A stretch of 64,000 nucleotides of DNA from Tachypleus tridentatus (lineage: Eukaryota; Arthropoda; Merostomata; Xiphosura; Limulidae), in NCBI RefSeq assembly GCF_004210375.1, contig NC_134830.1, forward strand, positions 47,869,094 to 47,933,093, in the 5' to 3' direction. Position numbers and translations under genes: made by a program. Position 1 is the first letter of the stretch, and each line of letters starts with the position of its first letter. The notes beneath the pieces are model-generated. The model ran no database searches and was not told the DNA's origin. It saw only the letters and a program-made list of their open reading frames with translations. Positions 8,914 to 63,191 of this stretch are shown here, piece by piece.

Positions 8914-9180
8914 GTTTTTGTTTGTTTATTTTGAATTTCGTGCAAATATACATGAGGAATATCTGTGCTAGCCGTCCTTGAGATTAGAGGGAATGAAGCT
9001 ATTCATCTACACTCATCGCGAACTCTTTGGTTACTCTTTTACGAACGAATATTGGGATTGACGGTTTATTTATAACGCCGTTACGGCTGAAAGGGTGAGA
9101 ATGTTTGACGTGACAGGGATTTGAGCCCTCAACCCACATGCTACGAGTCGAGCGCTCTGACTATTTGGCCATGCAGGGCC
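8914..9180 (-). repeat. SINE1 (diverged)
   Basis: Reverse-complement SINE1 running from its tail (TTTGTTTATTTTGAATTTCG) to the tRNA head (GGCCATGCAGGGCC). Many substitutions; no clear target duplication. Confidence 0.85.
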
Positions 9181-9647: not shown

Positions 9648-9885
9648 ATGGTTTGGGTTGCTTTGTTTTGAATTTCGCGCAAAGCTACACTAGGGCGATC
9701 TATGTTAGCCGTCCTCAGTTTAGTAGTGTAAGACTAGAGGGAAGGCAGCTCATTACCATCATCCACTACCAACTCTTGGGCTACTCTTTTACCGACGAAT
9801 AGTGGGATTGACGGAAATATTATAACGCTTCCACGGTCGAAAGGCCGAGCATGTTTGGTGTGACGGGAGATGTAGCCCCGTAACA
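9648..9885 (-). repeat. SINE1 lacking its tRNA head
   Basis: Reverse-complement SINE1 with tail, hairpin and body but only the end of the tRNA-related region. It is bracketed by an imperfect ~35-bp direct repeat (from 9611 and from about 9893). Confidence 0.85.
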
Positions 9886-10513: not shown

Positions 10514-10621
10514 AATGGCACAGCAGTATATCTGCGGATTTAACAACGATAGTAACCGAGTTTCGATACTCGTGGTGGGCAGAGCACTTGTATAGCTTTG
10601 AGTCAAACTTCAAAATAATAA
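10514..10621 (+). repeat. SINE3 (third tRNA-derived family)
   Basis: tRNA-like sequence with CAGCAGTATATCTGCGGATT, B-box-like GAGTTTCGATACTCG, then GTGGGCAGAGCAC...TAGCTTTG. A reverse-strand copy is at 23.2 kb. Related to SINE2 in its head but with a different T-arm. Confidence 0.65.
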
Positions 10622-16089: not shown

Positions 16090-16930
16090 TTACAATAATA
16101 ATTATTACATCTTCTGGCCATATGTTCTTGTTTATTACAAATATGGCGGCCCGGCATCGCCAGGTGGTTAAGAAACTCGACTCGTAATCCGAGGGTCGCA
16201 GGTTTGAATCCTCGTTACACCAAACATGCTCGCCCCTTCAGCCTTTGGAGCGTTATAATGTTTCGGTTAATCCCACTATTCGTTGGTAAAAGAGCAGCCC
16301 AAGAGTTGGCGGTCGGTGGTGACGACTAGCTTCCTTACCTCTAGTCTTGAATTGCTAAATTAGGGACGGCTAGCGCAAATAGCTCTCGTGTAACTTTGCG
16401 CGATATTCAAAAACAAAGAAAAACAATAAATACAAATGTAGCATTTAAGTTCAGGGCAATCGCGGAAAAGATGACTTTTCTCATAAATATAAATTCCATA
16501 TTTTGTGTTCGTCGTTATGTTTAATGTTGTAATAATGAATACGACAAAAGGTATCACTTAGTTTTACCGTATACGGTAATAACGATTTGTCTGGTGGGAA
16601 CACCACTCAAAATATTCAAGTTCATATGTACACTTCCTTAGTTTTCTTCCAGTGCCTTTTTACTGTTTCTGTTTTGTCGGAGTTGGCCTCCAAATTCCTC
16701 AATCTTTTTAACTATCTGGTCATCGTCAATATATGGTGATACGTTGAATATAGACACTGTCACCACTTTATTCACAGTTTAACCCGTTGGTAATAATGTT
16801 TCCCCACATTTAATACCCATATCTATACATATTTTTGCATTCGATAGTTCCTTAAACATAATTTCATACCTCTCAGGTTTCTGAACTGTCCATTGTATAT
16901 TACCAACTCTGTATAACAGTTCTACTGTGT
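16090..16930 (-). pseudogene. LINE ORF1 relic: RRM-like plus CCHC knuckles
   Basis: From MVDTVELLYRVGNIQW near 16938, through VSIFNVSPYIDDDQIVKKI (RRM-like β-strand and helix), to zinc-knuckle residues HLFRDCPELKCYIC and, beyond the SINE, KQEHMARRC. ORF1 proteins of L1/Tx1 elements bind their own RNA. Stops are present, and SINE1 lies between the two halves of the second knuckle. Confidence 0.75.
16143..16430 (+). repeat. SINE1 inside LINE zinc knuckle
   Basis: Full-length SINE1 opposite to the LINE, with tRNA-like head (GGTTTGAATCC B box), body, hairpin GCGCAAATAGC...AACTTTGCGC and A-rich tail. Flanked by TACAAAT at 16136-16142 and 16431-16437. Confidence 0.9.
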
Positions 16931-17871: not shown

Positions 17872-17999
17872 CCCCGCTCGTAAGGTGGTAAGTCTACGGA
17901 TTTACAACACTAAAATTAGGGGTTCGATTCCACTCGGTGGACTCAGCAGACAGCTCGAGCTCGCTGTGGCTTTGCTACAATAAAAACACACACACACTC
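17872..17999 (+). repeat. SINE2
   Basis: CCCCGCTCGTAAGGTGG head, anticodon-like GGATTTACAA, B box GGTTCGATTCC, tail hairpin AGCAGACAGCTC...GTGGCTTTGCT and (CA)n. It carries a small insertion in the hairpin loop. Confidence 0.9.
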
Positions 18000-19588: not shown

Positions 19589-19661
19589 GGGGACGTAGCT
19601 CAAATGGTAGAGCGCTCGCTTAGCATGTGAGAGGTACCGGGATCGATACCCGGCGTCTCCA
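19589..19661 (+). tRNA. tRNA-Ala (anticodon AGC)
   Basis: A complete 73-nt cloverleaf. The acceptor GGGGACG (19589-19595) pairs with CGTCTCC (19654-19660). It includes the G3-U70 wobble (19591 with 19658), the main identity element for alanyl-tRNA synthetase. The D arm holds A-box TAGCTCAAATGGTAGAGCG. The anticodon stem is CTCGC/GTGAG with loop TTAGCAT, and AGC is at 19622-19624. The T stem CCGGG/CCCGG encloses ATCGATA, and the discriminator is A at 19661. TTTTT at 19663-19667 is a Pol III terminator. No intron. Looks functional. Confidence 0.95.
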
Positions 19662-20755: not shown

Positions 20756-20980
20756 TAGCTTATGACGTATATACAAATCTGTTTTCAGGCACATGATGAA
20801 GATATGCCTGACTTTCGAGAGACGTTGCAGAGTAAGGTAAAGGACTTCCCGAAACATTGAAAGGTTCGAAAATACAATGACAACTATATTACTCCCAAAT
20901 TCATTAAACGATTCGAAGATATACCAACAACGCTTTGTTTGTTTTACAATTTAAAAAATCTAAATAATGGGCTCTGATGA

Positions 20981-21107
20981 GCCCTCCGCTTGTACAGCGG
21001 TATGTCTACAGATTTACAACGCTAAAACGAGTGGATCGATTTCCCTCGGTGGGCTGAGCAGATAGCCTGATGTAGCTTTGCTATAAGAAAACACACACAA
21101 ACACTGT
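20981..21107 (+). repeat. SINE2
   Basis: Second plus-strand copy 340 bp downstream; hairpin AGCA (21057-21060) with TGCT (21079-21082), then (CA)n. Confidence 0.9.
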
Positions 21108-21410: not shown

Positions 21411-21524
21411 GTTTCTCTTGTAACAAAGCCACATCGGGCTATCTGCTGAGCCCACCGAGGGGAATCGAATCCCTGATTTTAGCGTTGTAAATCCGGAGAC
21501 ATACCGCTGCACTAGCGGGGGGGC
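21411..21524 (-). repeat. SINE2 in hAT copy A
   Basis: Reverse-strand SINE2 with GGGGAATCGAATCCCTGATT and the head ending GCACTAGCGGGGGGGC. Flanked by GACATGAACAAT (21399-21410) and GACATGAACCAAT (21525-21537). Confidence 0.92.
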
Positions 21525-26957: not shown

Positions 26958-27045
26958 GGTTTGGTTGGTTTTTGGAATTTCGCACAAAGCTACTCGAGGG
27001 CTATCTGTGCTAGCCGTCCCTAATTTAGCAGTGTAAGACTAGAGG
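26958..27045 (-). repeat. SINE1 tail, cut by assembly gap
   Basis: Tail, hairpin (CGCACAAAGCTACTCGAGGG...) and start of the body, near-consensus, ending at the first N. Confidence 0.92.
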
Positions 27046-27545
27046 NNNNNNNNNNNNNNNNNNNNNNNNNNNNNNNNNNNNNNNNNNNNNNNNNNNNNNN
27101 NNNNNNNNNNNNNNNNNNNNNNNNNNNNNNNNNNNNNNNNNNNNNNNNNNNNNNNNNNNNNNNNNNNNNNNNNNNNNNNNNNNNNNNNNNNNNNNNNNNN
27201 NNNNNNNNNNNNNNNNNNNNNNNNNNNNNNNNNNNNNNNNNNNNNNNNNNNNNNNNNNNNNNNNNNNNNNNNNNNNNNNNNNNNNNNNNNNNNNNNNNNN
27301 NNNNNNNNNNNNNNNNNNNNNNNNNNNNNNNNNNNNNNNNNNNNNNNNNNNNNNNNNNNNNNNNNNNNNNNNNNNNNNNNNNNNNNNNNNNNNNNNNNNN
27401 NNNNNNNNNNNNNNNNNNNNNNNNNNNNNNNNNNNNNNNNNNNNNNNNNNNNNNNNNNNNNNNNNNNNNNNNNNNNNNNNNNNNNNNNNNNNNNNNNNNN
27501 NNNNNNNNNNNNNNNNNNNNNNNNNNNNNNNNNNNNNNNNNNNNN
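27046..27545. other. Assembly gap (500 N)
   Basis: Exactly 500 unknown bases, a conventional placeholder; true length unknown. The LINE's ORF1 and 5' end would fall here. Confidence 0.99.
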
Positions 27546-31880: not shown

Positions 31881-32064
31881 AACTTGAATTACTGTAGTTT
31901 TTCTTTTGACGTTGTAGACTAGATGTAAACATTGGTTTTATGCTATTTATTTATTTTTTAACTTTGTTTTGTTTTACCTTAATTTTCTTTTACCTTTTTA
32001 CTGGACATTTGGCACAGATAGCCTAGCTGTTTTGTGCCATAAAACATAAATCAACCAACTAACC

Positions 32065-33515
32065 AACCTTCCTTTCACATTTGTATGGATTGTTGATTTG
32101 AAATCAGGTAACTCTGTGGGCTCTGCTATGGTTTGTTGTGGTTTGGTGGTTGCTCGCAGAATCCCCTCTACAGCTTCTGTGTTCACTGCTGAACTGTACG
32201 CCATTTCTTTTGCTCTGGACCACATAGAAACTGTGCAGTACAAAATTGTACTATTTATACTGACTTGCTTAGTTCTCTACTGGTCCTGAAATCACTTCAT
32301 GCTAGTTCTCACCCTCTTCATGTTGATATGCAAAACCAATTGGTCCATTTCTCTCTATTATCTACTTTTATTCACTTTTTGTGGGATTGAGCTCGCTGAC
32401 ATTGCAACTAAGCCTGTCTGCTCTGGTGCTATCATGGCCATGCCTGTCCCATGCATGGACTTTGGCCCTATATTCAAGACTAGGCTCCATGCCATTTAGC
32501 AGCTGACTTGGAGTAAGCAACATGATAACAAACTTTCCCAGATCAAACCTTCTGTTGCTCTTTGGCCATCTTGCTTCCATAAGGATTGGAAGAAGAAAGT
32601 TGTTCTGGCCAGGCTATGCATTGGTCACAGTATTTAAGTCATTGCTTTTTTTTATCTGTGACTGATGCATCAGTGTGTGGTCTATATGACACTCAAGTCA
32701 CAATATCCCACATGTTACTGTTGTGCTGTCCTTATGATCAAGAGTGATGGTACAATTTTAAACATATTTTTACCTTGACATTAAACAGTGTCATTGACAA
32801 TGGTGAGACTGTCCACCTTAGTTGTGTTTTTAAATTTTTAATTGTCATTGGCCTGTTTAATTTTGTTTAAGTTGTTAATTCATAAGTTGGCCTTTGTTTT
32901 GTTTTAGCATACTTCCTTTTTATGTTCTAATAGTTTTATTATTACTTTTGGGTCATTCCATGTCAAATCATCCAGATGTTGGAAATGTTTTCAGGTGACC
33001 CTCTCAGAATGCCTTGAAAAAATTCACATATGCTTATCTACCCATATAATGAAAAACTGTCAAAGATTAGATCAATATCTCTAATAGTTTCTGATTTACA
33101 GCCTGTAAAATTTCATTAATTTTCTTTTATATTTGGCAAATTAATTTTTGGGCAACTTTGGCTGCTTAAAGCTTCAAGAGTAATGGTGGTAGAAGGCTGA
33201 AATTTGCCACACTGACTGAATTAATCTTGCAGCTTTTAGCAGCCAAAGTTGCCCGAAAATGAATTTGCTAAATATAAAAAACAATTAATGAAATTTTACA
33301 GGGCTGTAAATCAGAAACTATTAGAGATATTAATCTAATCTTTGGCAATTTTTTATCATATGGGTTAAATGAGCACGTGAATTTTTTCAAGGCATTCTGT
33401 GGGGTCCACTGCATGCCCCTGGATGATTTGACTTGGAACGACCCTTTTTACTAGTTGTTTTACACAGATGGCCTTGGTGCTTTGTGTCAATAATCACTAA
33501 ACAACCAACCAACCA
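32065..33515 (+). mobile_element. RNase-H-bearing LINE, copy 2 (5'-truncated)
   Basis: Begins inside RNase H directly at the (AACC)n tail of copy 1. It contains SAMVCCGLVVARRIPSTASV and ELYAISFALDHIE, then ELADIATK-like residues, a decayed Cys-His motif, and a 3' end with hairpin ACACAGATGGCC...GCTTTGTGT (33462-33487) and AACAACCAACCAACC tail. A foldback element (32949-33447) sits in its 3' UTR. Frames are broken. Confidence 0.85.
32949..33447. mobile_element. ~500-bp foldback (long inverted repeat) element
   Basis: Almost entirely palindromic. GGGTCATTCCATGTCAAATC at the left matches GGGTCGTTCCAAGTCAAATC from the right, and the arms pair over ~230 bp (CAGAATGCCTTGAAAAAATT, TCTCTAATAGTTTCTGATTT, GGGCAACTTTGGCTGCT) around a short centre near 33190-33215. 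No coding capacity, so a MITE-like element mobilised in trans. No clear target duplication. Confidence 0.9.
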
Positions 33516-34065
33516 GTCTAACATTGCACTAACCCTTAATTATGTAGAAAAATTCTTGTTTAGAAAATAAAACTGTAATATTTTTTTTCAAATCATAAAC
33601 TTGTATCTTCCCATTCTGTTGTTTTCAGTACATAAAAGAAACAAAAATTGAAAACCTTTGTCCTATTGACCAGATAAGCTTGTAATCTTGAATAATTAAT
33701 AGGTCATAATCTTTCTAGAAAAATAACCCTTCCATCTTTGAAATTGTAGTATTACCCTTCCTCTGAGTTATTTTGAACAAGTTATTGTTCCATGGACCAA
33801 ACATAACTGAAAGTATAATCAGCATTCCAGGTGAGGCCTAAATATTGATTTGCATGATGTTCTAATTTTTTTACATTTTCCTGGCTATAAACATTATGTG
33901 GGAGATATTAATCTTTTAAATATTTTACGAAAACTTAACATTTCAGAGATGATGTATTCTCATTTGTTTTAGGCTTAATGGACACTTTATACTGGAATGC
34001 TAAATGTGAGAACCTTCTTTGTTTACTTTTTTAACATATAGCAGTGTCTAGCTTTGTTGCGTTTG
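33516..34065. other. Non-coding, nothing recognised
   Basis: No gene or repeat identified. Confidence 0.5.
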
Positions 34066-34230
34066 ATTCTGAATAATAAAGCCATTTTGTAAAACTAAAC
34101 CTTTTGTGTGAATCAAATACATTCTGTTAAACTAAAGCTATAAGGTGAATTATAAAGACATTCTGTAACACTAAAATTGTTATGTGGATTGCAGACATTC
34201 TGTAAAACAAGCTGTTATGTGAATCATAAA
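34066..34230 (+). repeat. ~45-bp minisatellite, ~4 units
   Basis: Units around AAGACATTCTGTAAAACTAA followed by TTATGTGAAT(C), diverged. Confidence 0.8.
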
Positions 34231-34737
34231 GATAGGATGGTTGATCCTCTCTTAGTATAGATTTATTCTAGAAGTAATAATTGGAACAACTAATTTCAGC
34301 TACTATTATTTGATAATTTTTATAACAGTTAATGTGATTGGAATTTTTATTAATTAGTCATTGGAATAATTTTGATTTACGATTAACTTATACTTATTGG
34401 TCTAAATGCTGCTAATAAGAAATCAGTAAAATCAGCCATTTGTAAGCATTATTGAATAATGAGTATCTTTTACTAACAAAATGTATAAAATAATCTTTAT
34501 ATTATTACTGTAATAAGTTGTTAAATTGCTGTTACTATTATATTAGATACAGCAAGTTTTTATTGTCTGTATTGGGGACTATGTAGAATGGAATTCTGAA
34601 CAGGAATTTGCAGCACAAGAGAACGTTGCCAGGCATTCCAAAGTGAAAGTGTCTCCTTCATTGCAAGGTGTAGTTCATGAACCTCACTCATTCTGGTGAT
34701 TCGTTTGTTCATTCTAAAGAATAAAGATTATCCTTCA

Positions 34738-35100
34738 GATTGGTAACTAGAAAATACCGACATCATGTTATAGACTGTTAGAAAATGTTTATCATCCTTG
34801 GGCTTGATAAGAAGAGAATGCCGACATCACGTTATGGACTATTAGAAGATATTTATCATCCTTGAGTTTGGTGAGGAGAGAATACCGACATCATTTTATG
34901 GACCATTAGAAGATGTTCATCATCCTTGAGTTTGGTAAGGAGAGAATACTGTCATCATGTTATGGACCATTAGAAGATATTTATCATCCTTGAATTTGGT
35001 AAGGATAAAATACCGACATCACATTATGGACCGTTAGAAGATATTTATCATCCTTGAGTTTGGTAAGGAGAGAATACCGACATCACGTTATGGATCTGTA
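34738..35100 (+). repeat. 64-bp minisatellite, ~5.6 units
   Basis: Exact 64-bp period, units starting GAATACCGACATCACGTTAT and containing AAGATATTTATCATCCTTGA. Little divergence between units. Confidence 0.95.
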
Positions 35101-35570
35101 CAAAATACTTAATTCTGTGACTGAATGAACACAGTAAGTTGAATCTTGGGTGACATATTTTCACCACCTGTGTGGAAATGAAATACTATTTAACAAATCT
35201 AAACTAAACCTAAATCTCTGTAACCAAACACTGTTTTTATACAACAACAATTTAAATAGATGTAAACATCTTGCAATGTAATGAGAAGTTATGTATGTTA
35301 TATAAGTGCTTGGTAAGGGCAATATAGTACATGTAATTTCACCCATGAAAGAGCATTCATATATCTGTAAAACAGATATTAAATTAATATATCTAGATAA
35401 AAATTGTGCTTACACAGTGAGTGAAACTGCTAATGTAACCTCCACAATTACAGATCTCTCATACCTCTCATATATAACTTTTATAGAGAGAGTTACTTTT
35501 GATTCTAGTTTATAAAAGCCTGTACTTCTGTTATTAGAATGTTCTGTGGAAATCATAAGTAAAATCTATG
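35101..35570. other. Non-coding spacer
   Basis: Short open frames on both strands, no domain; nothing recognised. Confidence 0.5.
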
Positions 35571-36060
35571 CAAGTACAATAGTCCTAAATGGTACATTTT
35601 AAGTACAGTAGTCCTAAGTGTTACATTTTAAAGTAGCACCTTTTTAAGAATAAAGTAAAAGTGTGATGCATTCTTGTTACATGTAGGATTTCTGTAGTAC
35701 ACTACTATAATAATTCTACCAAGAAACCTAGTTACATGTAGGATTTCTGTAGTTCACTACTCTAGTTGTTCTATCAATTAACCTTGTAACATGTAGGATT
35801 TTGGCAGTATACTACTGTAATAATTCTACCAAGAAACTGTTACACTTAGGATTTTGGTAATACACTACTATAGTTCTATCAAGAAAACTTGTCACATATA
35901 TGATTTCTGCAGTACACTACTGTAGTAGCTCTATCAAGAAATCTTGTAACATATAGGATTTCTGTAGTGGTTCTGGAAACCTTGCTACATGTAGGGTTTC
36001 TATAATGGTTCTGGCAAGAAGCCTTGCCACATATAGCGTTTCTATAGTGGTTCTGTCAAA
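35571..36060 (+). repeat. Minisatellite block, ~30-bp then ~55-65-bp units
   Basis: Two units of AGTCCTAA(A/G)TGKTACATTTTAA are followed by about seven units of the form ACATGTAGGATTTCTGTAGT...CTACCAAGAAAC, the later ones shortened. Confidence 0.85.
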
Positions 36061-36270
36061 ATACCTGGTTTACATGTGTCTTGGAAGTAAAGTTGCATAC
36101 TGGTTTACGTGTGTCTTGGAAGTAAAGAATTATGCAACTTTACTTCAAGACACACGTCCAGTATGCAACTTTACTTCCAAGACACACGTTAACTAATATG
36201 TAACTTTACTTACAAGACACACGTTAACTAGTATGTAACTTTACTTACAAGACAAATGTAAACTGGTATG
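36061..36270. repeat. ~35-bp satellite with an orientation switch
   Basis: Two units of GTTTACRTGTGTCTTGGAAG then, from about 36131, the same unit reverse-complemented four times (CAACTTTACTTCCAAGACAC). The junction is a near-perfect palindrome. Confidence 0.92.
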
Positions 36271-36399
36271 TAACTTAGTTACAGAGTGCACAGTAGATGA
36301 AAGTTATAACAAGAAGCAAAATGCAAAAAATACAAGTAGTCCAAGTAAGAATATTATTGACATATCTCTGTAACAGACATTAATATTAGATATGGACCA

Positions 36400-36804
36400 T
36401 GCCAGTAAACTCATTCTTGGCCTATTAAACATACTGCTGTCACTATATTATAGAACAATGTAGTGTACAAATTAGATTCTGCGCACGTATTGCCGAAACA
36501 TCTTTATATTATAAAATAATATATATATAAACCAGGCCCAGAAAATGTATTGTTGAAATGTCATTATGTCACAGAACAATACATTTAAAGATGACCTGGT
36601 AAAAATTTAGTTGAATTGTCACTCTATTATACACAAACTGGACCCAGTAAACATATAGTTGAAGTGTCACTGTATTATAGGACAATGTCGTATATAAACT
36701 ACACCCTGTAAACATATAGTTGAAATGTCACTGTATTATAGGAAAATATTGTATGTAAACTACACCCGGTAAACATATAGTTGAATTGTCACAATATTGT
36801 AGAA
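36400..36804 (+). repeat. ~62-bp minisatellite, split by hAT copy B
   Basis: Units with AAACATATAGTTGAAATGTC and ACTGTATTATAGGACAATG. The array continues at about 41890-41932 and 42085-42145 on the other side of the hAT insertion. Confidence 0.85.
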
Positions 36805-38835
36805 CAGGGGTAGCCAAACTGTGGCTCGCAAACCTCTTGCAGCTCTAGGACATATGTGTGGCTTGCGGAAATATGTTGGCTGAGCTTCTTTTGCATCACA
36901 ATTAATATAAAAGGTAAATACAAAATTTTCAAGTTTTATAATCATTTACTGGCTATAAACTGAGAGTTCACTGGATTAAAATGTAAGTTTAATGTTCATG
37001 GTGAGTAAATATATTTCAGAATTTAAATCCTAATTTTAATGCTAGATTTGAGTCAGGGATTAAAGAAATTTTGGATCAGCAAGGATTACAGAGGTATTGT
37101 GCTGGAGAATCAGTAATCATACAAGGTGGTGCTAACAATGTTAGTTTTACTGGATGTGGCTCATGATCGTGTGATTGTGGCATATGCAAAGTGTTATTTT
37201 GATACTGGGTGCTGTAGAGTTTGGTTGTGTTGCGCGTGTTGGAGCTTATTGTTTCTTTTCCTTTAATTTTTAGAAGTGTCTGAAAATTTTGTGAAGGAAG
37301 ATCGTGTCATCAAATTGTAAGAATCAAAAGTGTGAAGATAAAAACAGAAATTTGAAGCCAGGGTGGAAGATTTTGCATTCACTATTAAAGGAGGTAAACC
37401 TTTGTGTCTTATCTGCAGTGTGTTACTCCATCATTACAAAGCTCGTAACTTGAAATGCCACTTTGAAATAAATCACAAAATTTTCGTCTTATCATCCACC
37501 TAAATCAGAATTATGGAAAAACAAGTTAACTGTGTTAAAATTATCACTAAATAGCCAGCAGACGCTGTGGACAACATTCATTCAGGAAGTTGATAAAATG
37601 ACTGAAGCTAGTTTTGTTATATCATGGAATATTGCTCATGCTAAACACCCATATTCTGATGGTGAAGTTGTTAAGAAGAATATAAATGAAATTGTTGCAG
37701 TGTTAGATCCAAATAACAAAACTTCAGTGATTAATAGCACAAACAGTAGCTTCACGTCACACTACAGAGAGGCGTATCTCCCAGATCAGTCCTGATGTTG
37801 CAGGCAAAATGTAAAATGATTTAAAGAATTCTCTCGCATTCAGTGTACCCCATGACGAATCCATAGATACACAAGACAACCCACAACTGGTGGTATTTGT
37901 TTGTTATGTTTCCTCTGATGCAACTGTGAGAGAAGAGATGTTGAACTCAGTGGCACTAAAAGAAGCAACTTGTGGTGGTGACATTAAAATGCACTTGACA
38001 GAGCCTTAACAAATGCTAATATTCCACTGAATAAACTTATCAGTGTTGCAACAGATGGAGCACCTGCAATGGTGGGGAAAAATGCAGGATTAATTGCACT
38101 CATGAAAAGTGATCCCAGCTTTCCAGAGTTTCTTCCTGTTCATTGCATTATTCATTGTGAACACCTGATAGCCAGATATTTCAAGTATGAAGATGTTATG
38201 AAATCTGTTCTTGAAATTGTCAATTTCATGTTTAAATGGGAAGACCCACGGACAGTTCAAAAATTTTATTAAAGAACTGGAGTTTGAAAATAAACCCAGT
38301 GATGTTTCTTTCTACTGCATTGCGAGGAGGCTGTCAACCAGCAATGTCTAAAATAGGATGTGGGAGCCTATTATTACTTTTCTTGAAGAAAAGAAAAGAT
38401 TCTATCTTCAACTGGAAAATGATGAATGTATGCAAGATCTAATGTTCCTTACTGATATAATAAATCATCTACAAGCTCTCAATTTGGCACTCCAATAGAA
38501 AGATAAGATTGTTTCTGATCTTACTCAGACAATTTTCAGCTTTCAGAGTAAAATGAAAAGTTTTTCAAAGAGACATGTTGTCAAGAAACTGTCTCTAAAG
38601 GAGAGTAAATATACCCTGTGATATTGAAATAAAAGACCACAAACTGGAAGAATACAAAGATAAATTACAAGGAGTGCTTGATAATTTCCTAAACAGGTTT
38701 GAGGACTTGCAGAAGCTGAAGATCTGCTTTGCCTTTCTTGTAAATTAATTCATGGTTGATGTGATCAATGATGGTTGTTTTATTCTCGAACCTCTGGTTA
38801 CAGAATCATCTGCTGTTGAAATGGAACTAATAGAA

Positions 38836-40781
38836 CAGTGGTGCACAAAGTCCGGCCCATGATGTCCAATGGGAAAGTCGAACATAGAGAGTTCACATGC
38901 TTAGAGTTCACGCCTGTGTGAAGATTAAGCTCTATAGAAGAATATGCATTAGATTAGATACTGAATGGTTCCATATTTGTGTCGATCAGTAAAGAAACAG
39001 CTCGAATTGAATCTCTGTGGCAGTCGCTAAATGACCAGCAGAACATTTTCTCAAAGCAGTCAGCAGATTTAGGTGCAGCATGTGAGGTCAGTTACAATAT
39101 TTCGTTGATGATAGTGAAATCTGGCTGACCGTTCACTTATGGTGATTTTGTTAAGTAATGTATGATTACTGCATCGTAAAAGTTGTGTCCGGAAGCAGTT
39201 TACAAGCTACGGACGGTGGCTTTGAATCATGTGGCAGTTGAACGAAGAATTTCACACCTCTCAGCCCATGTGACAAAGCAGCTTACAAATAAAGCAGCCA
39301 ACTTTGTCTACTTCTCTTTGGCAGCAGACGAGTCGCATTACATCAATTCAACAGCGCAGCTACTAGTTTTTGTTCGTGGTGTGTCGTCATCATTTGATAT
39401 CACAGAGGAACTAATCAGCATGGGTTCCATGAAGGGTCAGACAACTGAGTCTGCTCTACTTGAGGAGACAGTACAACTGTGTAGTAGTGTTTCATTGGAT
39501 TTCATGAAACTGGTAAATATGACAACTGATGGAGCACCAGCCATGACTGGAGAAAGTAGCGGGCTGGTAACACTTTTAATGAAGCATCGACGAAAGTAGA
39601 GCAGACAGTTGGTGAAGTTGCACTGTGTTATTCACAACAGAACCTGTGCAGTAAAGAACTTGGTTTTCAGTCACTGATGGCATTAGTGACGAAAACCATT
39701 AATTTCATCACATCACGAGGGCTCAATCACCGTCAGTTTTGAAGTCTTTTTGAAGAAATTGATTCAGACTATGGTGACCTTGTGTATCACTGTGAAGTAC
39801 GCTGGCTGAGTCGAGGGAAGATGCTCAGAAGATTCTGGGAGTTGATTGATGAGGTGATAGAATTCCTCAGAAGCAAGAACAAAGACACAGAAGTGATTTC
39901 CATGACTGATCCAGCATGGCAAGCTGATTTGACCTTTCTGGTCGACATGACACAACACTTGAATGATATGAATTTGAAGTTGCAAGGCAAAAATCAGCTT
40001 GTCTGTCAGTTTGCAAATCACGTCTCAGCTTTTAGGACAAAGTTGCAGTTGTTCTGGCAGCAAGCAGCATCAGGCAACTTTGTGCACTTTCCCCACTTTT
40101 CAGTCACAGCTACAGAAGAATCAGGATATTGACACACAAGTTTATGTTGGGAAACTAGATAACTTGATTCAATCCTTCTACTCACGGTTTCATGACTTTG
40201 ACCAATGCAGATTGTTGATGAAACATTTTGCTTATCTGTTCAGTGTGTCAGTGGATGACTTGTCAGCAGAATATCAGCTCGAACTTACTGATCTCCAGGC
40301 ATCTGATGAACTGCGTGCTATTTACCGAAAAAACAGTTTGCTTGACTTCTACAAAACGTTGCCTGATACATTTGATAATCTGAAAGAGAATGCACTTGTC
40401 CACACCAGCATGTACTGCTGCGAACAGGCTTTCTCGCATATGAAACTGAACACAAACAACACTCGCAATCAGCTGACTGATGATCATCTGGAAGCAGTCT
40501 TGCGTCTTTCAACGTCAAACATCAAGCCGGACATTTCTAAGCTCGTAGATGACATGTAGCACCATCCATCACACTGACTTTGTGACAGTTGACGTATCAT
40601 AACATTTGTTAGAATAATGTGCAAACTTTTTGATGTAATCGTTATTTTTGTGTTCGTAAATGTGATGTCCATCTTGTGTGAAACAACTGTGGGACGATTT
40701 TAATTTTCACTTTTTCATAGCCCCCAACGGTTACGAGAAGTCTGTTTGTGGCCCCTGACTCAAAACGTTTGTGCACCACTG
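38836..40781 (+). mobile_element. Second hAT (GTF2IRD2/ZBED5-like), nested
   Basis: A 1,946-bp element with terminal inverted repeats CAGTGGTGCACAAA at both ends and a perfect 8-bp target duplication TAATAGAA (38828-38835, 40782-40789). It lies inside the coding region of hAT copy B. Copy A retains the uninterrupted site (GGAACTAATAGAACTACAGG, read on its strand, near 22180). Confidence 0.97.
39000..40559 (+). pseudogene. Transposase of nested hAT
   Basis: CPEAVYKLRTVAL (39183), FSLAADES (catalytic Asp region, about 39320), TTDGAPAMTGESSGL (about 39523), HCEVRWLSRGKMLRRFWEL (about 39790), LNLKLQGK-like DMNLKLQGKNQLV (about 39967), and a C-terminal CCEQAFSHMKLN with RNQLTDDHLEAVLR (about 40420-40500), the hAT dimerisation motif. 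This is the protein type called general transcription factor II-I repeat domain 2-like in databases. One stop (39597) and about two frameshifts break it. The 5' part (to about 39180) is decayed. Confidence 0.9.
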
Positions 40782-41418
40782 TAATAGAACTGCAGGAGAA
40801 CCTGGGTCTAAAGATGATCCATAAATCCCATTCTATAATTGAGTTCTGGAAGCAAGTTTTAGAAATAAAATAACCTGAACTGAAGAAAACCTGTGGGCGA
40901 CTCATCTTAATTTTCAGCATAACATACTGCTGTAAATCACTGTTCTCTGTAATGAAGTTTATGAAGTCGAAGCATCGTGCAATTCTTACCAATCAACACT
41001 CGAAGGAGCTAATTCGGGAATTTCAATGACTCACGACCAATTTGGAAACTCACAAGACCTCTATTAACCGGAAATAGCCTGTTTGTGTAAGAAAAATATT
41101 ATAAGACTAAAATTTTGTAAGGTGGTATCTGATTAAAATATCTCTAATTTTATTGTTTTACATATTTTATTTCCATGGTTTGACCAGATATTTATTAAAT
41201 ATCATTAAAAGTATCTGTTTTACTCCTTTTATTTTTATTTTTGGCAGTCTCATTTAATGTTAATGAAATGCAAATTTGCATATTTTTTTGAGATGTTTCC
41301 GTAGTTCAACCGTATTAAATATGCTCAATAAAGTTAAAACAATAATCATCCACAATTTTGTAAACATTTGGTATATATATGTGTACTTTGTGATTATTGA
41401 AACTAATACAAATTAACA

Positions 41419-41700
41419 GTTTGTTTGTTTTGAAATTTCGCACAAAGCTACTCGAGGGCTATCTGTGCTAGCCGTCCCTAATTTAGCAGTGTAAGACTAG
41501 AGGGAAGGCAGCTAGTCATCACCACCCACCGCCAACTCTTTGGCTACTCTTTTACCAACGAATAGTGGGATTGACCGTCACATTATACGCCCCCACGGCT
41601 GGGAGAGCGAGCATGTTTAGCGCGACGCGGGCACGAACCCGCGACACTCGGATTACGAGTCACACGCCTTACGCGCTTGGCCATGATAGGCCAGGCCATG
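41419..41700 (-). repeat. SINE1 in hAT copy B
   Basis: Near-consensus reverse SINE1, from TTTGTTTGTTTTGAAATTTC to the tRNA head. Flanked by ATTAACA at 41412-41418 and 41701-41707. hAT copy A has the empty site near 21650. Confidence 0.95.
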
Positions 41701-41931
41701 ATTAACATTTTAAAAACTAGATACATGAATAAATATTATTACGTACATGTATTTATTAATATTTATATAAAATTTATGTAAAAATGTGCATGTGACAATA
41801 AGCACGTCTCTGTAATATTTGTTCAAGTTTTCAAACATCTGAAGTTTATCATAGGTGACTCTTATGTTAAGCAAGTTTGGCCACCCCTGTCTATATTGTG
41901 TACAAACTAGATCCAAGAAACATATATTAGG

Positions 41932-42084
41932 ATGCGCAGGTGCTGTTCTCGGTTTTTCGCATTTTGCTCGCTCACCTTCTTAGGAAAAGGAGCCGTGGTA
42001 GGCGCCGTCGCATCAGCCATTTTTTAAAGCTTTATTTTAAATTTTGCTACTCGGTTGAAAAATACGAGCCCCAGCACGTATAAA
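41932..42084. other. GC-richer unexplained insert in minisatellite
   Basis: About 150 bp (GATGCGCAGGTGCTGTTCTC through GAGCCCCAGCAC) interrupts the ~62-bp array and is unlike its surroundings. No coding or tRNA-like structure recognised. Confidence 0.4.
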
Positions 42085-42390
42085 AACTGGAACTAGTAAA
42101 AATATAGTTGAAATGTCACAATATTGCAGGATAATGTTGTATACAGCATACTCCGGAAAGCAGGAAGTGTTTTATTTTATCCATTTACAAAATGTTAGTC
42201 TAGCTTGTAATACTAAACTTATCAGTAGCCACTGGTACAAACATCAAATGAAATATTCCTGTTACAAAGGAGTTCTAGCTGTGCAGAGATCTTGTGAATA
42301 TAGGGTTTAGACTGATCAAGATGATTCTCTTTAATTTCGTCAATCATTGATACTTTACTACAAACCACAGAACGACAATAACCAGATATT

Positions 42391-42620
42391 CGGCTCGGCA
42401 TGGCCAAATGAGTTAAAGCATTCGACTCGTAATCTGAGGGTCGCGGGTTAGAATCCCCGTCGCACCAAACGTGTTCGCCCTTTCAACCGTGGTGGCGTTA
42501 TAATATGACGGTCAGTCCCACTATTTGCTGGTAAAAGAGTAGTCCAAGAGTTGGTGGTGAGTGGTGATGACTAGCTGCCATCCCTCTGCTAAACTAGGGA
42601 CGGATAGCGTAGGTAGCCAT
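42391..42620 (+). repeat. SINE1 without its 3' end, fused to LINE copy 3
   Basis: Complete tRNA head and body, ending at GGATAGCGTAGGTAGCC, in the middle of the hairpin. LINE coding sequence follows within 10 bp. Confidence 0.92.
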
Positions 42621-44945
42621 TTACGTGGCCATTTACCCATATTTATTAAAGATTTCTTTAACGGGCAGTAGATTCCAAGTTCGTGTGGGTTCAACACATT
42701 CCCGTTCTTTTCTACAGGAACTTGGGGTCCCTCAAGGCTGTGTTTTGAGTGTCACACTTTTCAGTATAAAGATTAATGCCATCACTAAACAACTCCCTCT
42801 CACTGTTGCAAATGGGCTCTATGTCGACGACTTTTACATCTCGTGTCAGTCGTCGAACATGAGATATATTGGCAACAACACAACTGCCCTCGATCGTGTA
42901 CTGAAGTGGACCACAGTGAACAGCTTTAATTTCTCTCTCTCTATAACCGTTTGCATGCACTTTTGCCGCCAACGGGGTATCCACTCTGATCCTGAACTTC
43001 GTATCGATGAAGTTTCGCTGCCTGTGGTCCCTGAGACCAAGTTCTTGGGGCTTATCTTTATAAGGGCTGACCTTTATACCACACTTAAAGCAGTTACGGG
43101 TCCAATGCACAAGAGCCCTGAACATCCTCCGTGTCCTCTCTACCACCAGTTGGGGAGTGGATCGATGTTCTATGTTAAAGATATATCGTTCTCTTATTCG
43201 ATCGAAACTCGACTATGGATCAATGGTCTATGGCTCTGCCAGACCCTCGGCCTTAAAGATGCTGGACCCCATTCATCATCAAGGACTTCGACTCTGCACT
43301 GGGGCTTTCTGCACCTCCCCAGTTCATAGCTTATATGTAGAATCTCATGAACCTTCTTTGCACCTTCGCCATTTGCAACTGTCTTTACTATATTCTTCGA
43401 AACTTCATTCCTTACCAAAGCATCCCACCTGGGGTTTTGTTTTCCTTCCTTGATGGGCCATACTTTTTCAAAACAGACGATCTGCCATTGCTCCTTTTGG
43501 TCTTCGCGTCCAGGCGCAATTGGATGAATTGTGTCTATCCTTGGATAACATTGATGTATCCATTGGTCAACCCATCCCACCATGGCTTATTACAGTCCCC
43601 AAATGTGACCTTTCTTTAAGTCATCTGAGAAAAGCAGATACTCCTGATTGGAAGTACCATCTTTTATTTACTCAACATCTTTTGAACAATCTTTCCATTC
43701 CAATTTATATAGATTGTTCCCAATTATATGACTATGTGGGCTCTGCCATGGTTTGTTGCGGTTTGGTGGTTGCACGCAGAATCCCCTCTACAGCTTCTGT
43801 ATTCACTTCTGAACTGTACACCATTTCTCTTGCCCTGGATCATATTGAAGCTAAGCAGTACTCCAACTGCACTATTTATACTGACTCTCTTAGTTCTCTA
43901 CTGGCTCTGGAATCGTTTGACATTGGTTCACACCCTGTTCTCGCTGATATTCAAAACCGACTGGCCCATTTCTCATTAACATCTACTTCTATCCAGTTTT
44001 TCTGGATACCAGGCCACGTTGGTTTTCGCGGGAACGAGCTTGCAGACATGGCAGCTTAATCTATCTGCTCTGGCACAATCACCACTGTGCCTATTCCATA
44101 CATGTACTATGTTCCTGTATTCAAGACTCGGCTACGTGCCAGCTGGCAGTCGATTTGGAGTGAGCAACGTGAAAACAAGCTTTTCCAAATGAAACCTTAT
44201 ATTGGACTTTGGCCGTCTTGTTCAGTAAAGATTGGAAGGAGGAAGTTGTTCTAACTAGATTACGCATTGGTTACAGTTTTTTAACTCATCGTTTTCTTTT
44301 ATCTGGAACTGATGCACCAATGTGTAGTTTGTGTAACACTCAGATCACTATCAGCCACATTTTACTTTCTTGCCATCGTTACGACTCTCAACGACGGCAC
44401 TATTTTAAACATGTTCTGTCCCAAGGTTTGTCCATCACGGTAACACTGTCCACCTTGATAAAGTTTTTAGTTTTTTTAACGGCCATTAATCTTTTTAATG
44501 TCATTTAAGTGTTTTATATTTCTTTATTAAACCTTTTTATTGTGGTTCCCTTTTAATAATCACAGTCTCTCGTTCAATTTGAAATTAGAAAATGGCCGTA
44601 ACATTAAATAACTCGACACCAGGACTGGAAAGGCCAACTTCAAATGACTGACGGTGGTTCTTGTACTTACCTGTTAGTCTTCCTGTCGGGTTATGATAAT
44701 ACCATTATGCTGCAGAAAGTCCTTTATAACTTCTCTTTCAGTAGTTTCTCTCTTAACATTGTAGACTGGATGTCAACATTCGTTTTATGCCATTTATGTT
44801 TTTAAATCCTGTTTTGTTTTACCTTCATTTCCTTTTATGAATTTTACTACATTTACTTTTACCTTTTTACCGGACGTTTGGCGCAGATAGCCTAGCTGCT
44901 TTGTGCCATAAAACACTAAATCAACCAACCAACTTACCCATGACC
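42621..44945 (+). mobile_element. RNase-H-bearing LINE, copy 3 (5'-truncated)
   Basis: Begins in the RT palm (corresponds to 29330 of copy 1). RT, RNase H, CCHC motif and a 3' UTR follow, then hairpin GGCGCAGATAGCC...GCTTTGTGCC (44880-44907) and an AACCAACCAAC tail. It is the best-preserved copy, with long open frames. Confidence 0.92.
42625..44508 (+). pseudogene. LINE ORF2 3' part: RT, RNase H, Cys-His
   Basis: A 234-codon frame with GVPQGCVLSVTLFSIKINAI and active-site YVDDFYIS (42820), then thumb sequence in other frames. A 179-codon frame (43520-44059) is RNase H, with the four acidic residues visible: Asp in YIDCSQ, Glu in SELYTISLAL, Asp in IYTDSLSS and Asp in GNELADMAA. WIPGHVGFRGNELAD matches the family closely. 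A last frame (44209-44508) carries CSLCNTQITISHILLSC. Only a few frameshifts and stops separate the frames. Removes the RNA strand after reverse transcription in active relatives. Confidence 0.9.
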
Positions 44946-45880
44946 CTTTACATTGAATATTGGCACACAAGGATACTTCCCTCCAGACATCTTCCCTTCT
45001 GTTATTATAACATTTAAAAATTGCACATCATTCAGTACTCCAACTTTCCTAGCAGTTTTTAATACTTAAGTAGGTATATCATCTCAGTCTACTACTTTCC
45101 AATTTTTAATTTTCTCTTTTAATTTTCTTTTTAATTTTCCTTTAACGTCTCACCCTTATCCGTGTTTCGTATTATCGACAGTTTCTCTCAATCATTCCGT
45201 TCAGTTAATAGGTGTTAGAAGTATTCTTTCCATCTGTCACACCTTACCATTTTCGCCCTTAATAAACTTTTACCTATCCCTTTCCCTGCCTTCAGCTTGT
45301 CTGTGTAGAATTTTCTACTCCTACCTCCAAATACGTATACAGCTCAACCTGTGCTCTCTGTTTGTCATCAACTCTTTCCTTTGTCGCTACCACTTCTTAA
45401 ATTTTACTTTCTTTTCCTTCATAGTTATTTGTTTTTTCTCGTTCCACCACCATGTTACTTTCTGTGTATAGTTTTCTTCTTTAGTCACTTGTATACGTTT
45501 AACAGTTCCCCTGTACCTGGTTCACACTTTTATACCATTCAACCTGTCTACGTTTTTATTACAATATTGCCAAATAACTCCTTTCATGTATGCAGTTCTC
45601 TCAGAGCTCACCATTTTATTTTGAGGAATCCATTTACCATGCACCCTTCAATTCATAATTCATCACCAAAATCCTCTCTTGCGAGACTTTCCCATGGTGT
45701 AACTTCTTCTCTTGTAACCATTAGGTGATTAATTCGACTCCTAATATTCTCACTTCTGTTTGTTATTAGTTGTTCTTTTGAACCACCTGCAGGATCTCCC
45801 CACCTTCCTTATATTCTTGTCTTTCATGTTATCTCACAACCATCTCTGTACTGTCGGACTAGTCCACTTAATCAGCTCCC
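44946..45880 (-). pseudogene. RTE/BovB-like LINE relic
   Basis: The plus strand is strikingly pyrimidine-rich. The minus strand reads as a purine-rich, much-broken coding relic: WFKRTTNNKQ (end of endonuclease, about 45785), TWWWNEKKQITMKEKK (about 45455), CDRWKEYF (about 45230) and DDIPT with VLKTARKVGVLN (about 45085). This order (endonuclease end, WWWNE linker, RWKEYF, RT start) is typical of the 'craniofacial development protein 2-like' RTE group. Stops throughout. Confidence 0.6.
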
Positions 45881-46164
45881 ATTGCTGTTAACTCTTTATT
45901 TATTTGATTTAAATGTGCAATCGTAGAAAAGGAAGTTATAAAATAAAGCAAAACAACTTATTACTAAGATCTACCCAAATTAAAATAAAAACAACGCTAT
46001 CTACAAATTTACATTCAACTCATTTGAAAAAGTGTAAAGTACCAATTCACGTTGTGTTACTTCTAACCATCCCATAGTGTGCCTACCCTAGTACCACTTC
46101 ACAACGTGTCACCATCCCACAGTCTGTCTGCCTTACACTTAGGCTTAACCTTTGTGTGTTTGTT
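45881..46164. other. Non-coding, nothing recognised
   Basis: No gene or repeat identified. Confidence 0.5.
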
Positions 46165-46345
46165 TTTAATTTCAGTCGTTGAAGCGTTATAATGTTATGG
46201 TCAATCCCAATATTCTTTGGTTAAAGAGTAGTCCAAAAATTGGTGGTGGGTGGTGATAACTGTCTACATTCCCTCTACTCTTTCACTGATAAATTAAGGA
46301 CGGTATGTAAACTATGCTATCTTGTGGGCATTATCTGTTTTGGTC
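46165..46345 (+). repeat. Old SINE1 fragment
   Basis: Body only (GTTATAATGTTATGGTCAAT ... GTGGGTGGTGATAACTGTCT ... ATAAATTAAGGACGG), diverged, head lost. Confidence 0.8.
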
Positions 46346-46370
46346 GAAAAATCCTGGTCCATTTGGAAAT

Positions 46371-46652
46371 GGGGCCCAGCATGGACAGGTGGGTAAAGGC
46401 GTTCGACTCGTAATCTGAGGGTCGCGGGTTCGAATCCCGGTCGCACCAAACATGCTCGCCCTTTCAGCTGTGGGGGTGTTATAATGTTACGGTCAATCCC
46501 ACTATTCGTTGGTAAAAGAGTAGCCCAAGAGTTGGCGGTGGTTGGTGATGACTAGCTGCCTTCCCTCTAGTCTTACACTGCTAAATTAGAGACGGCTAGC
46601 GCAGATAGCCCTCGAGTAGCTTTGCGCGAAATTAAAAAAACAAACAAACAAA
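46371..46652 (+). repeat. Full-length SINE1 (reference copy)
   Basis: 282 bp. The head has CGACTCGTAATCTGAGGGTC around a CGT anticodon position, and B box GGGTTCGAATCC. Body, hairpin GCGCA (46599-46603) with TGCGC (46623-46627) and (CAAA)n tail follow. Perfect 12-bp target duplication CCATTTGGAAAT (46359-46370, 46653-46664). Confidence 0.98.
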
Positions 46653-55003: not shown

Positions 55004-55283
55004 AGCTTGGTTTGGTTTTTTGAATTTCGCACAAAGCTACTCGAGGGCTATCTGTGCTAGCCGTCCCTAATTTAGCAGTGTAAGACTAGAGGGAAGGCAG
55101 CTAGTCATCACCACCCACCGCCAACTCTTGGGCTACTCTTTTACTAACGAATAGTGGGATTGACCGTCACATTATAACGCCCCCACGGCTGGGAGGGCGA
55201 GCATGTTTGGCGCGACTCGGGCGCGAACCCGCGACCCTCAGATTACGAAGCGCACGCCTTAACGCGCTAGGCCATGCCAGACC
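55004..55283 (-). repeat. SINE1 with paralogous empty site
   Basis: Near-consensus reverse SINE1 in the 3' flank of the CYxCG copy 2. Flanked by CTGTACTTTTACA (54991-55003) and CTGTACTTTTTACA (55284-55297). Copy 1 carries one uninterrupted CTGTACTTTTACGACATAA at 715-733. Confidence 0.97.
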
Positions 55284-59904: not shown

Positions 59905-60182
59905 GTTTGAATTGGTTTGTTTTGAATTTCGTGCAAACCTACACGAGGGTTATCTGCGCTAGCCGTCCCGAATTTAGCAGTGTGAGATTAGAGGGAAGGC
60001 AGCTAGCTATCACCACCCACCGCCAACTCTTGGGCTACTCTTTTACCAACGAATAGTGGGATTGACCTTCACATTATAACGCCCCACGGCTGAAAGGGTG
60101 AGCATGTTTGGTGTAACGGGTATTCGAACCCGTGACCCTCGGATAACGAGTCGAGTGCCTTAACCACCTGGCCATGCCGGGC
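59905..60182 (-). repeat. SINE1
   Basis: Full-length, near-consensus, with 14-bp target duplication CCCGAAAGAGAAAG (59891-59904, 60183-60196). Confidence 0.97.
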
Positions 60183-61012: not shown

Positions 61013-61293
61013 TTTGTTTTTGTTTGTTTTTTAATTTTGCACAAAGCTACTGGAGGGCTATCTGTGCTAGCCGTCCCTAATTTAGCAGTGTAAGAGTAGA
61101 GGAAAGGCAGCTAGTCATCACCACCCACCGCCAACTTTTGGGCTACTCTTTTATCAACGAATAGTGGGATTGACCATAACTTTATAGTGCCCCCACGGCT
61201 GAAAGAGCGAGCATGTTTTGTGCGACCGGGATTCGAACCTGCGATCCTCAGATTTCAAGTCGAACGCCTTAGCCCACCAGGCCATGCTGGGCC
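61013..61293 (-). repeat. SINE1
   Basis: Full-length; 12-bp target duplication ATTAGAGAAAGA (61001-61012, 61294-61305). Confidence 0.97.
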
Positions 61294-62919: not shown

Positions 62920-63191
62920 GGCCCGGCATGGCCAAGTGTGTTAAGGCGTGCGACTCGTAATCTGAGAGTCGCGTGTTCGCATCCCCGTCGCGCCAAACAT
63001 GCTCGCCCTTTCAGCCGTGGGGGGTGTTATAATGTTACGGTCAATCCCACTATTCGTTGGTAAAAGAGTAGCCCAAGAGTTGGCGGTGGGTGGTGATGAC
63101 TAGCTGCCTTTCCTCTAGTCTTACACTGCTAAATTAGGGACGGCTGACACAGATAGCCCTCGAGTAGCTTTGTGCGAAATTCCAAAACAAA
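62920..63191 (+). repeat. SINE1
   Basis: Full-length; 12-bp target duplication CTCTTTATAACT (62908-62919, 63192-63203). Confidence 0.97.

What the first reader, a model, noticed from the sequence alone, without database searches (positions are those of the whole stretch)
32011..46627. A covarying two-helix hairpin shared by the 3' ends of a LINE and at least two SINE families
Seen: the three LINE copies end GGCACA-GAT-AGCC...GTT-T-TGTGCC (32011-32038), ACACA-GAT-GGCC...GCT-T-TGTGT (33462-33487) and GGCGCA-GAT-AGCC...GCT-T-TGTGCC (44880-44907). SINE1 ends GCGCA-GAT-AGCC...GCT-T-TGCGC (46599-46627) or GCACA...TGTGC (other copies), and SINE2 ends AGCA-GAT-AGCC...GCT-T-TGCT (21057-21082). The outer stem changes sequence but stays paired, the GAT/T internal loop and AGC/GCT inner stem are kept, and loops vary. 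Known: some SINEs borrow the 3' stem-loop of a partner LINE for recognition by its reverse transcriptase. Inference: this RNase-H LINE is or was the partner of SINE1 and SINE2, and possibly SINE3.
Basis: partly seen in the sequence, partly recalled or inferred. Interest (0 to 1): 0.8.

Follow-up and report, generated by a model that had tools for sequence, protein, structure and literature searches.

The report
Shared tail hairpin of horseshoe-crab retrotransposons
In the genome of a horseshoe crab, one family of self-copying DNA elements and three kinds of short parasitic elements end in the same small RNA hairpin, which is probably the label by which the long element's copying enzyme picks up RNA; this is a new and very abundant example of a known type of partnership.

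Summary
The core AGATAGC-N4..14-GCTTTG occurs 252,783 times against 279 for the reversed control pattern. It forms the 3' tip of an RNase-H-bearing LINE lineage in 24 of 29 loci, and of three tRNA-like-headed SINE families, SINE3 included. Fourteen core letters (CAGATAGC...GCTTTG) are identical in four family consensuses; outer stem and apical loop differ. Outer-stem covariation exceeds 500 of 500 shuffles. Much of it lies in two facing CpGs and must be discounted; three changes do not. The inner AGC/GCT helix is conserved sequence, not demonstrated structure. None of 20 control LINE loci carries the hairpin at its own end. Best reading: a stringent-type LINE/SINE partnership in which three SINEs use the tail mark of an RNase-H LINE lineage. 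Against a simple pairing: 3' terminal repeats differ, SINE1 and SINE3 tails resemble each other more than LINE-A, SINE hairpins fold weakly, and another repeat family (L071) also ends in the hairpin. A new member of a known kind.

The parts
32011..32038 (+). Terminal hairpin of LINE-A copy 1 (GGCACA...TGTGCC)
   Evidence: model R1 hit 32003-32044, 50.2 bits
44880..44907 (+). Terminal hairpin of LINE-A copy 2 (GGCGCA...TGTGCC, one G.U)
   Evidence: R1 hit 44872-44913, 56.6 bits
33462..33487 (+). Terminal hairpin of the LINE-B copy (ACACA...TGTGT)
   Evidence: R1 hit 33453-33494, 32.7 bits
27643..32059 (+). LINE-A copy 1, decayed open stretches, 3' UTR, CAAC-type 3' repeat; 5' limit approximate
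   Evidence: no Pfam hit for the two stretches of this copy tested; blocks alignable to copy 2 at 79-89%
42613..44935 (+). LINE-A copy 2; RVT_1 hit in the ORF at 42613-43326 and RNase_H hit in the ORF at 43454-44056; 5' limit approximate
   Evidence: 23,382 first-look candidates genome-wide for the stretch with RNase H
32104..33487 (+). LINE-B copy, 5'-truncated in the RNase H region, about 72% identical to LINE-A DNA, interrupted by a MITE at 32950-33444
46371..46652 (+). SINE1 copy: tRNA-like head, central domain, hairpin, AAAC repeats; flanked by 12-bp target-site duplication CCATTTGGAAAT
46599..46627 (+). SINE1 hairpin, G-C version (GCGCA...TGCGC)
   Evidence: R1 61.0 bits
5503..5547 (+). 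SINE1 tail, A-U version
63138..63182 (+). SINE1 tail, A-U version, 12-bp TSD
61032..61076 (-). SINE1 tail, A-U version, 12-bp TSD
55022..55066 (-). SINE1 tail, A-U version, 10-bp TSD
41433..41477 (-). SINE1 tail, A-U version
26975..27019 (-). SINE1 tail, A-U version, body cut by the run of N
59924..59968 (-). SINE1 tail, G-C version with one broken pair, 14-bp TSD
16364..16408 (+). SINE1 tail, G-C version
9670..9714 (-). SINE1 tail, decayed
8933..8977 (-). SINE1 tail, decayed
20980..21100 (+). SINE2 copy: tRNA-like head followed directly by the hairpin and ACAC repeats
21057..21082 (+). SINE2 hairpin (AGCA...TGCT)
   Evidence: R1 41.6 bits
20704..20747 (+). SINE2 tail
21414..21457 (-). SINE2 tail, 9-bp TSD GTTCATGTC
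17935..17984 (+). SINE2 tail with longer loop
61781..61817 (+). SINE2-like tail, no head recognised
   Evidence: 23 bits
46781..46824 (-). SINE2 tail, decayed
   Evidence: 16.7 bits

Best explanation
The hairpin is the 3'-terminal recognition mark of an RNase-H-bearing LINE lineage (I superfamily; the clade name is recalled, not tested) in Tachypleus tridentatus. SINE1, SINE2 and SINE3 carry the same mark at their 3' ends and are, or were, copied in trans by that lineage's reverse transcriptase at target-primed reverse transcription. What is recognised is probably the near-invariant 14-nt core CAGAUAGC...GCUUUG presented on a paired outer stem, since stem sequence and apical loop differ between families. 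Shown: shared tail, terminal position, identical core in the consensuses, outer-stem covariation above shuffles, absence from the control LINE loci examined, target-site duplications on SINE1 and SINE2 copies. Inferred: binding by the LINE protein, trans-mobilisation, and which LINE family drives which SINE.
For: Core 252,783 places against 279 for the reversed pattern. Terminal hairpin in 24 of 29 LINE loci (of the other 5, L025 ends before the tip). In the same 3' UTRs, 19 internal repeat units lack it. Core identical, 14 of 14 positions, in four family consensuses made from 26 LINE, 24 SINE1, 9 SINE2 and 4 SINE3 tails (tails had been accepted by a loose match to this core). Covariation score 0.251 against 0.176 +/- 0.013, 0 of 500 shuffles as high, and higher than all six slid structures. 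Changes not explained by CpG: cols 9-44 G-C in 23 of 26 LINE tails, A-U in 4 of 4 SINE3 (L001 and L002 share flanks, so about 3 independent; two more, L072 and L073, agree); cols 11-42 C-G, A-U in 8 of 9 SINE2; cols 10-43 G-C to A-U in 2 of 26 LINE tails. SINE1, 100 listed of 94,644 tails with intact stem pattern: A-U 65, G-C 26, G.U 5, A.C 4, Fisher 5e-15. LINE GTT-loop tails, 70 printed of 762: both variable pairs Watson-Crick in 32, shuffled mean 21.1, 67 of 20,000 as high. Further 3' UTR types of the same lineage carry it (L064, L065, L067-L070). 0 of 20 other LINE loci have it at their own end. TSDs of 9-14 bp on SINE1 and SINE2 copies.
Against: 3' terminal repeats differ between LINE-A and SINEs. 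Outside the hairpin, LINE and SINE2 or SINE3 tails are not alike upstream (2 of 8 positions each); SINE1 matches LINE at 6 of 8; downstream, SINE1 and SINE3 share 5 of 6 positions with each other against 2 and 1 of 6 with LINE. In the 70 LINE tails neither pair alone is significant (p 0.40 and 0.13). Of 14 LINE tails picked for rarer loops, 6 have all six outer pairs and 7 break by the fourth pair. SINE folding energies equal shuffles; in isolated tails the outer stem forms with probability 0.01 in SINE2, 0.41 in SINE1 G-C, 0.47 in SINE3. The number of pair types is not above shuffles (199 of 500). No clear TSD on the SINE3 copies tested. A further repeat family (L071) also ends in the hairpin and its coding capacity is unknown.
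Confidence: 0.7

Rival explanations
1. The SINEs are driven by a different LINE, related or not, that shares the hairpin; the LINE-A and LINE-B families of this window are sisters of the true partner.
For: L071 (C1:2552590) has a 3' region unrelated to LINE-A/B except for the last 47 nt. That region is an interspersed repeat with 40 scored matches, itself included, the other 39 at 74-78% identity. SINE1 and SINE3 end in AAAC repeats, LINE-A in CAAC/CAAT. SINE1 and SINE3 tails are closer to each other than to LINE-A.
Against: Of the 20 sites whose flanks were fetched (picked, not random), 6 were this LINE lineage, 11 were SINEs, and only L071 was another dispersed family. Some LINE-B-type tails read CCAAACAACC, nearer to AAAC. 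41 genome-wide hits of a pattern excluding SINE1/SINE3 upstream bases show only two 10-mers twice each, though that filter would miss most families with fixed upstream letters.
Confidence: 0.18
2. The conserved core is recognised as linear sequence; the outer stem is incidental and its covariation is CpG decay of two facing CpGs plus a few subfamily founders.
For: The left CpG faces the right CpG in the stem, so C->T on one strand or the other yields TG:CA or CA:TG pairs. In SINE1 the two intermediates are equally rare (G.U 5, A.C 4), as strand-symmetric decay predicts. Neither LINE pair is significant alone. SINE hairpins fold no better than shuffles.
Against: Independent decay at the observed single-loss rate would give about one A-U copy, not 65 of 100 (inference). 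Three compensatory differences are not CpG changes. Both-Watson-Crick excess in 70 LINE tails, 67 of 20,000.
Confidence: 0.1
3. SINE-to-SINE exchange: only one SINE family got the tail from a LINE, and the others captured it from that SINE by recombination or template switching.
For: SINE1 and SINE3 share downstream sequence. SINE2 and SINE3 have related tRNA-like heads (matches of 72-76%). The elements lie inside or beside one another (L073, L074).
Against: SINE2's stem, loop and 3' repeat differ from both others. This concerns origin, not mechanism.
Confidence: 0.15

Closest known systems
UnaL2 / UnaSINE1-2 (eel, L2 clade) and zebrafish ZfL2-1, ZfL2-2
   Same: SINE shares a 3' tail with a LINE; the LINE protein recognises the cognate stem-loop (PMC4176376, abstract and parts 1-2 of 5 of the text read; eel pairing listed in PMC3747384 Table 1)
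   Different: There the apical loop is the specific determinant. Here the apical loop varies in length and sequence and the conserved letters lie in and below the inner stem. RNase-H LINE rather than L2. No UnaL2 hit in an all-Rfam scan of the window.
Gecko SINE / I-74_AAe and other I-clade LINEs (mosquito)
   Same: tRNA SINE with an I-named LINE tail, the only protostome pair in PMC3747384 Table 1 (section 21, part 1 of 2 read)
   Different: Different animal; one SINE family listed there, three here; tail sequences not compared here
SINE2-1_Acar / Vingi-2_Acar (Anolis)
   Same: SINE paired with a Vingi LINE, an Ingi-related clade (PMC3747384 Table 1 and a reference title there)
   Different: Vertebrate; tail not compared; Vingi membership of this LINE not tested
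Monocot L1 / ZmSINE2-3 tail hairpins
   Same: LINE/SINE tail hairpin with compensatory stem changes and conserved unpaired letters (PMC3747384, passages and figure legends read)
   Different: Conserved letters are in the loop and the 3' flank; L1 clade
MetaSINEs (Nishihara et al. 2016)
   Same: Recalled: widespread invertebrate tRNA SINE superfamily with a conserved central domain, possibly the class of SINE1
   Different: Paper not held; membership not testable here

Membership tests
Stringent-type LINE/SINE pair | SINE and LINE share a 3'-terminal sequence absent from unrelated LINEs | tested here: met
   24 of 29 LINE loci, three SINE families, 0 of 20 control LINE loci (few families); the shared part is the hairpin only
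Stringent-type LINE/SINE pair | The shared tail can form a stem-loop | tested here: met
   outer stem by covariation and LINE-A folding; inner stem inconclusive; SINE2 and SINE1 G-C fold weakly in isolation
Stringent-type LINE/SINE pair | 3' UTR or stem-loop required for retrotransposition and bound by the LINE protein | not testable with these tools
   needs cell and binding assays
Stringent-type LINE/SINE pair | Same 3' terminal repeat in LINE and SINE (frequent, not defining) | tested here: not met
   LINE-A CAAC/CAAT, SINE1 and SINE3 AAAC, SINE2 ACAC; some LINE-B-type tails intermediate
I-superfamily (RNase-H) LINE | RT followed by RNase H in one ORF | tested here: met
   RVT_1 1.4e-21 and RNase_H 4.5e-11 in L050
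I-superfamily (RNase-H) LINE | APE-type endonuclease upstream of RT | tested here: inconclusive
   outside the ORF tested; some of the 120 listed relatives carry PF14529 or PF03372
I-superfamily (RNase-H) LINE | Exact clade (I, Nimb, Ingi, Vingi, LOA) | not tested
   no labelled reference sequences at hand
UnaL2 LINE 3' element (Rfam, family recalled) | Covariance-model match | tested here: not met
   all-Rfam scan of the window at E <= 1 lists 7 matches, none of that name
SINE (SINE1) | tRNA-like head, central body, LINE-like tail, TSD | tested here: met
   tRNA origin by eye only, ARAGORN finds none of these heads
MetaSINE superfamily (SINE1) | Meta-domain sequence | not testable with these tools
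   paper not held

The most novel reading that the evidence does not exclude
A recognition code opposite to that of the L2 pairs. One RNase-H LINE lineage reads a fixed internal-loop/stem core and ignores the apical loop, so that several LINE families and at least three SINE families can diverge in loop, stem letters and 3' repeat yet share one machinery. SINE2 and SINE3, a tRNA-like head plus a hairpin of about 27-35 nt, would be natural minimal substrates showing sufficiency.
Probability: 0.35. Interest if true: 0.7.

Novelty: new member of a known kind. Interest (0 to 1): 0.48.

Why it matters
How LINE enzymes choose their template RNA is known in detail for few clades. This case offers many natural variants of one tail, a fixed 14-nt core to mutate, and a tRNA-like-head-plus-hairpin SINE that shows how little may be enough. 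The mark is very abundant: 94,644 SINE1-type tails with intact stem pattern against 1,276 and 762 LINE tails of two types.

Tried and rejected
Structure-only scan: too permissive. Negative-filter pattern for other elements with a SINE1-like hairpin: 41 scattered hits; weak, because a family with fixed upstream letters mostly passes or fails as a block. IMG/VR scans by pattern and by LINE protein: nothing. GTDB scan: 9 hits, with no similarity to the SINE or LINE queries beyond about 34 nt at the hairpin, useful as a chance control (R1 gives them 15-23 bits, so R1 scores in that range are not evidence by themselves). PDB by sequence: nothing. One fold (L001) held only part of a hairpin and was not used. 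Text searches for the tail letters and for horseshoe-crab SINE/LINE pairs: no description found (listings seen, and passages or sections of six papers). The library holds only CC-licensed papers, so this is not proof of absence. The planthopper virus paper holds the 8-mer in a PCR primer only. Thermodynamic stability as an argument: rejected for the SINEs. Rows left out of the 63-sequence alignment, of 82 made: 15 internal LINE 3' UTR units, the L031 tip (deletion in the stem), an L043 stretch, a SINE1 body without tail (window 46296), one decayed SINE1 (L014), one L001 near-duplicate and one decayed SINE3 (L006:8760); 9 further candidates had failed the fuzzy tail match. L016:3746-3790 and window 33453-33494 were added by hand.

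Full report
What and where. The window is C6:47869094-47933093 of a 2.17-Gb genome in 205 contigs. Proteins annotated as Tachypleus tridentatus lie on contigs of 156,482,250 and 169,002,194 bases, exactly the lengths of C2 and C9, so I take the species to be the tri-spine horseshoe crab.

Beyond chance. A structural descriptor alone gives 26 window hits at 5 or more outer pairs against 15 in simulated sequence. With the GATAGCC letters 0.025 are expected. Genome-wide, GATAGCC-N7-AGCTTTG occurs 152,807 times against 4 for the same pattern read backwards; AGATAGC-N4..14-GCTTTG 252,783 against 279. In the GTDB genome collection a 27-place version has 9 hits, 6 of them in Paracoccus.

Which elements. 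(a) An RNase-H LINE. The ORF of L050 carries RVT_1 and RNase_H; named relatives among the 120 listed are from spiders, scorpions and a limpet. 30 loci were fetched by the stretch with its RNase H; one is the window itself. Of the other 29, 24 show the hairpin at the 3' tip (training sequences of the model included). The flank was only 1.5 kb, and L025 ends before the tip. The LINE 3' UTR holds internal repeat units; 19 such units matched have no hairpin, so in these copies it is kept at the terminus only. (b) SINE1: tRNA-like head, central domain, hairpin, AAAC repeats. (c) SINE2 and (d) SINE3: tRNA-like head followed almost directly by the hairpin. TSDs of 9-14 bp are clear on many SINE1 and some SINE2 copies; for several older copies, and for the SINE3 copies, my simple search found none. 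In the window itself three SINE3-like matches (ending near 10587 +, 60420 +, 23222 -) have lost or decayed tails, which the model does not hit at E <= 0.1.

Diversity of hairpin carriers. Of 100 listed core sites I fetched the flanks of 20, picked for unusual loops. By eye: SINE1 6, SINE2 3, SINE3 2, a 43-bp tandem repeat 1. By BLAST: this LINE lineage 6 (L064, L065, L067-L070); no relation 1 (L066, a chance site); and L071, whose last 47 nt match the LINE tip while the rest is another dispersed repeat with 40 scored matches, itself included. L071 is the main loose end.

Controls. The 20 loci L001-L020 start at top-scoring RVT_1 hits, of a jockey-like kind by my eye, so few families. The model finds hairpins in several of them; the 8 on the LINE's strand (L006, L015, L016, L019) lie 2.0 to 8.2 kb downstream of the RT start and in SINE copies. 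The 3' ends of these LINEs were not mapped.

Covariation. On 63 tails (60 distinct) the given structure pairs 86.5% of cells (shuffled 81.0), has 34 both-sided changes (12.5) and a score of 0.251 (0.176 +/- 0.013), with 0 of 500 shuffles as high on each of these three. Pairs with a both-sided change: 5 against 3.2 (25 of 500). Further pair types are not in excess (199 of 500). The tool's own text warns that related sequences can exceed shuffles without structure. By family: columns 12-41 are G.U or A-U in LINE tails, G-C or A-U in SINE1, mostly G-C in SINE2, A-U in SINE3; 11-42 are mostly C-G but A-U in SINE2 (8 of 9); 9-44 are G-C in LINE (23 of 26) and A-U in SINE3 (4 of 4), unpaired in SINE1 (0 of 24) and SINE2 (1 of 9); 10-43 change to A-U in 2 of 26 LINE tails and are unpaired in SINE2 (1 of 9). 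Of 14 further LINE tails picked for rarer loops, 6 keep all six pairs, among them C-G, U-A, G-C, A-U and G.U versions; the others break somewhere.

The CpG caveat. The stem can hold a CpG on each side, and these pair with each other, so methylation decay (inference) makes TG and CA on either side. In the 100 listed SINE1 tails (start of C1) the A-U and G-C versions dominate (65 and 26) with 5 G.U and 4 A.C: linked subfamilies, not independent decay of copies, but the equal intermediates look like neutral decay after insertion. In 70 LINE tails of the GTT-loop type (those printed with letters, of 762), 32 have both variable pairs Watson-Crick (21.1 expected, 67 of 20,000 shuffles) and 57 have both standard (51.3; 222 of 20,000); the single pairs are not significant. 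Both samples were chosen by patterns that fix the core and allow only Y/R at the variable places.

Structure. The outer stem is the supported part. RNAalifold prefers to extend the outer helix through G15.U38 and A16-U37. SINE2 with its flank folds otherwise, which may not matter if the tRNA-like head folds first (inference).

Mechanism. By analogy with ZfL2 proteins, which bind the cognate stem-loop through the region between endonuclease and RT (PMC4176376), I infer that this LINE's protein binds the tail and primes reverse transcription, and that the SINEs ride on it. If the same protein serves all, recognition should lie in the core and not in the apical loop. That is the testable, less ordinary part.

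Abundance. Exact or near-exact tails: SINE1-type 94,644, SINE2 5,992, SINE3 4,083, LINE-A 1,276, LINE GTT-loop type 762 with the stem pattern and 1,806 without it. These are pattern counts, not copy numbers.

Novelty. SINE/LINE pairs sharing a tail are long known, including an I-clade pair in mosquito and a Vingi pair in a lizard (PMC3747384, Table 1, part 1 of 2 of that section read). A T. tridentatus genome paper mentions SINEs as a small share of repeats (PMC7815833, passages). I found no description of this tail in the papers searched, but the MetaSINE paper, the likeliest place, is not held. I file it as a new member of a known kind.

Noticed in passing
32950-33444: A palindromic MITE with terminal inverted repeats of about 26 bp (GGGTCATTCCATGTCAAATCATCCAG, two mismatches) and a long internal palindrome sits inside the LINE-B copy; weak miRNA-model hits below cut-off (mir-7131) fall on it.
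   Followed up: partly
L076 (C1:204560-205100), also places near C1:268806-269390: A 43-bp tandem repeat whose unit holds the SINE1-type hairpin core: a tail turned into a minisatellite.
   Followed up: no
L071 (C1:2552590-2552960): A dispersed repeat family (40 scored matches, itself included; the other 39 at 74-78%) unrelated to LINE-A/B except for the hairpin tip; possible further LINE or SINE partner.
   Followed up: partly
L022-L050: Many LINE-A 3' UTRs contain a second unit about 400 bp upstream of the last; these internal units end in GGACATTTGGC followed by different sequence, only the last unit ends in the hairpin.
   Followed up: partly
37472-40559: Broken open stretches that look to me like an hAT-type or ZBED-like transposase (recalled resemblance; the one stretch tested had no Pfam hit).
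   Followed up: no
19589-19661: A tRNA-Ala (AGC) gene, the only tRNA that ARAGORN finds; none of the SINE heads is recognised.
   Followed up: no
27046-27545: A run of 500 N cuts off the body of a SINE1 copy upstream of LINE-A copy 1.
   Followed up: no
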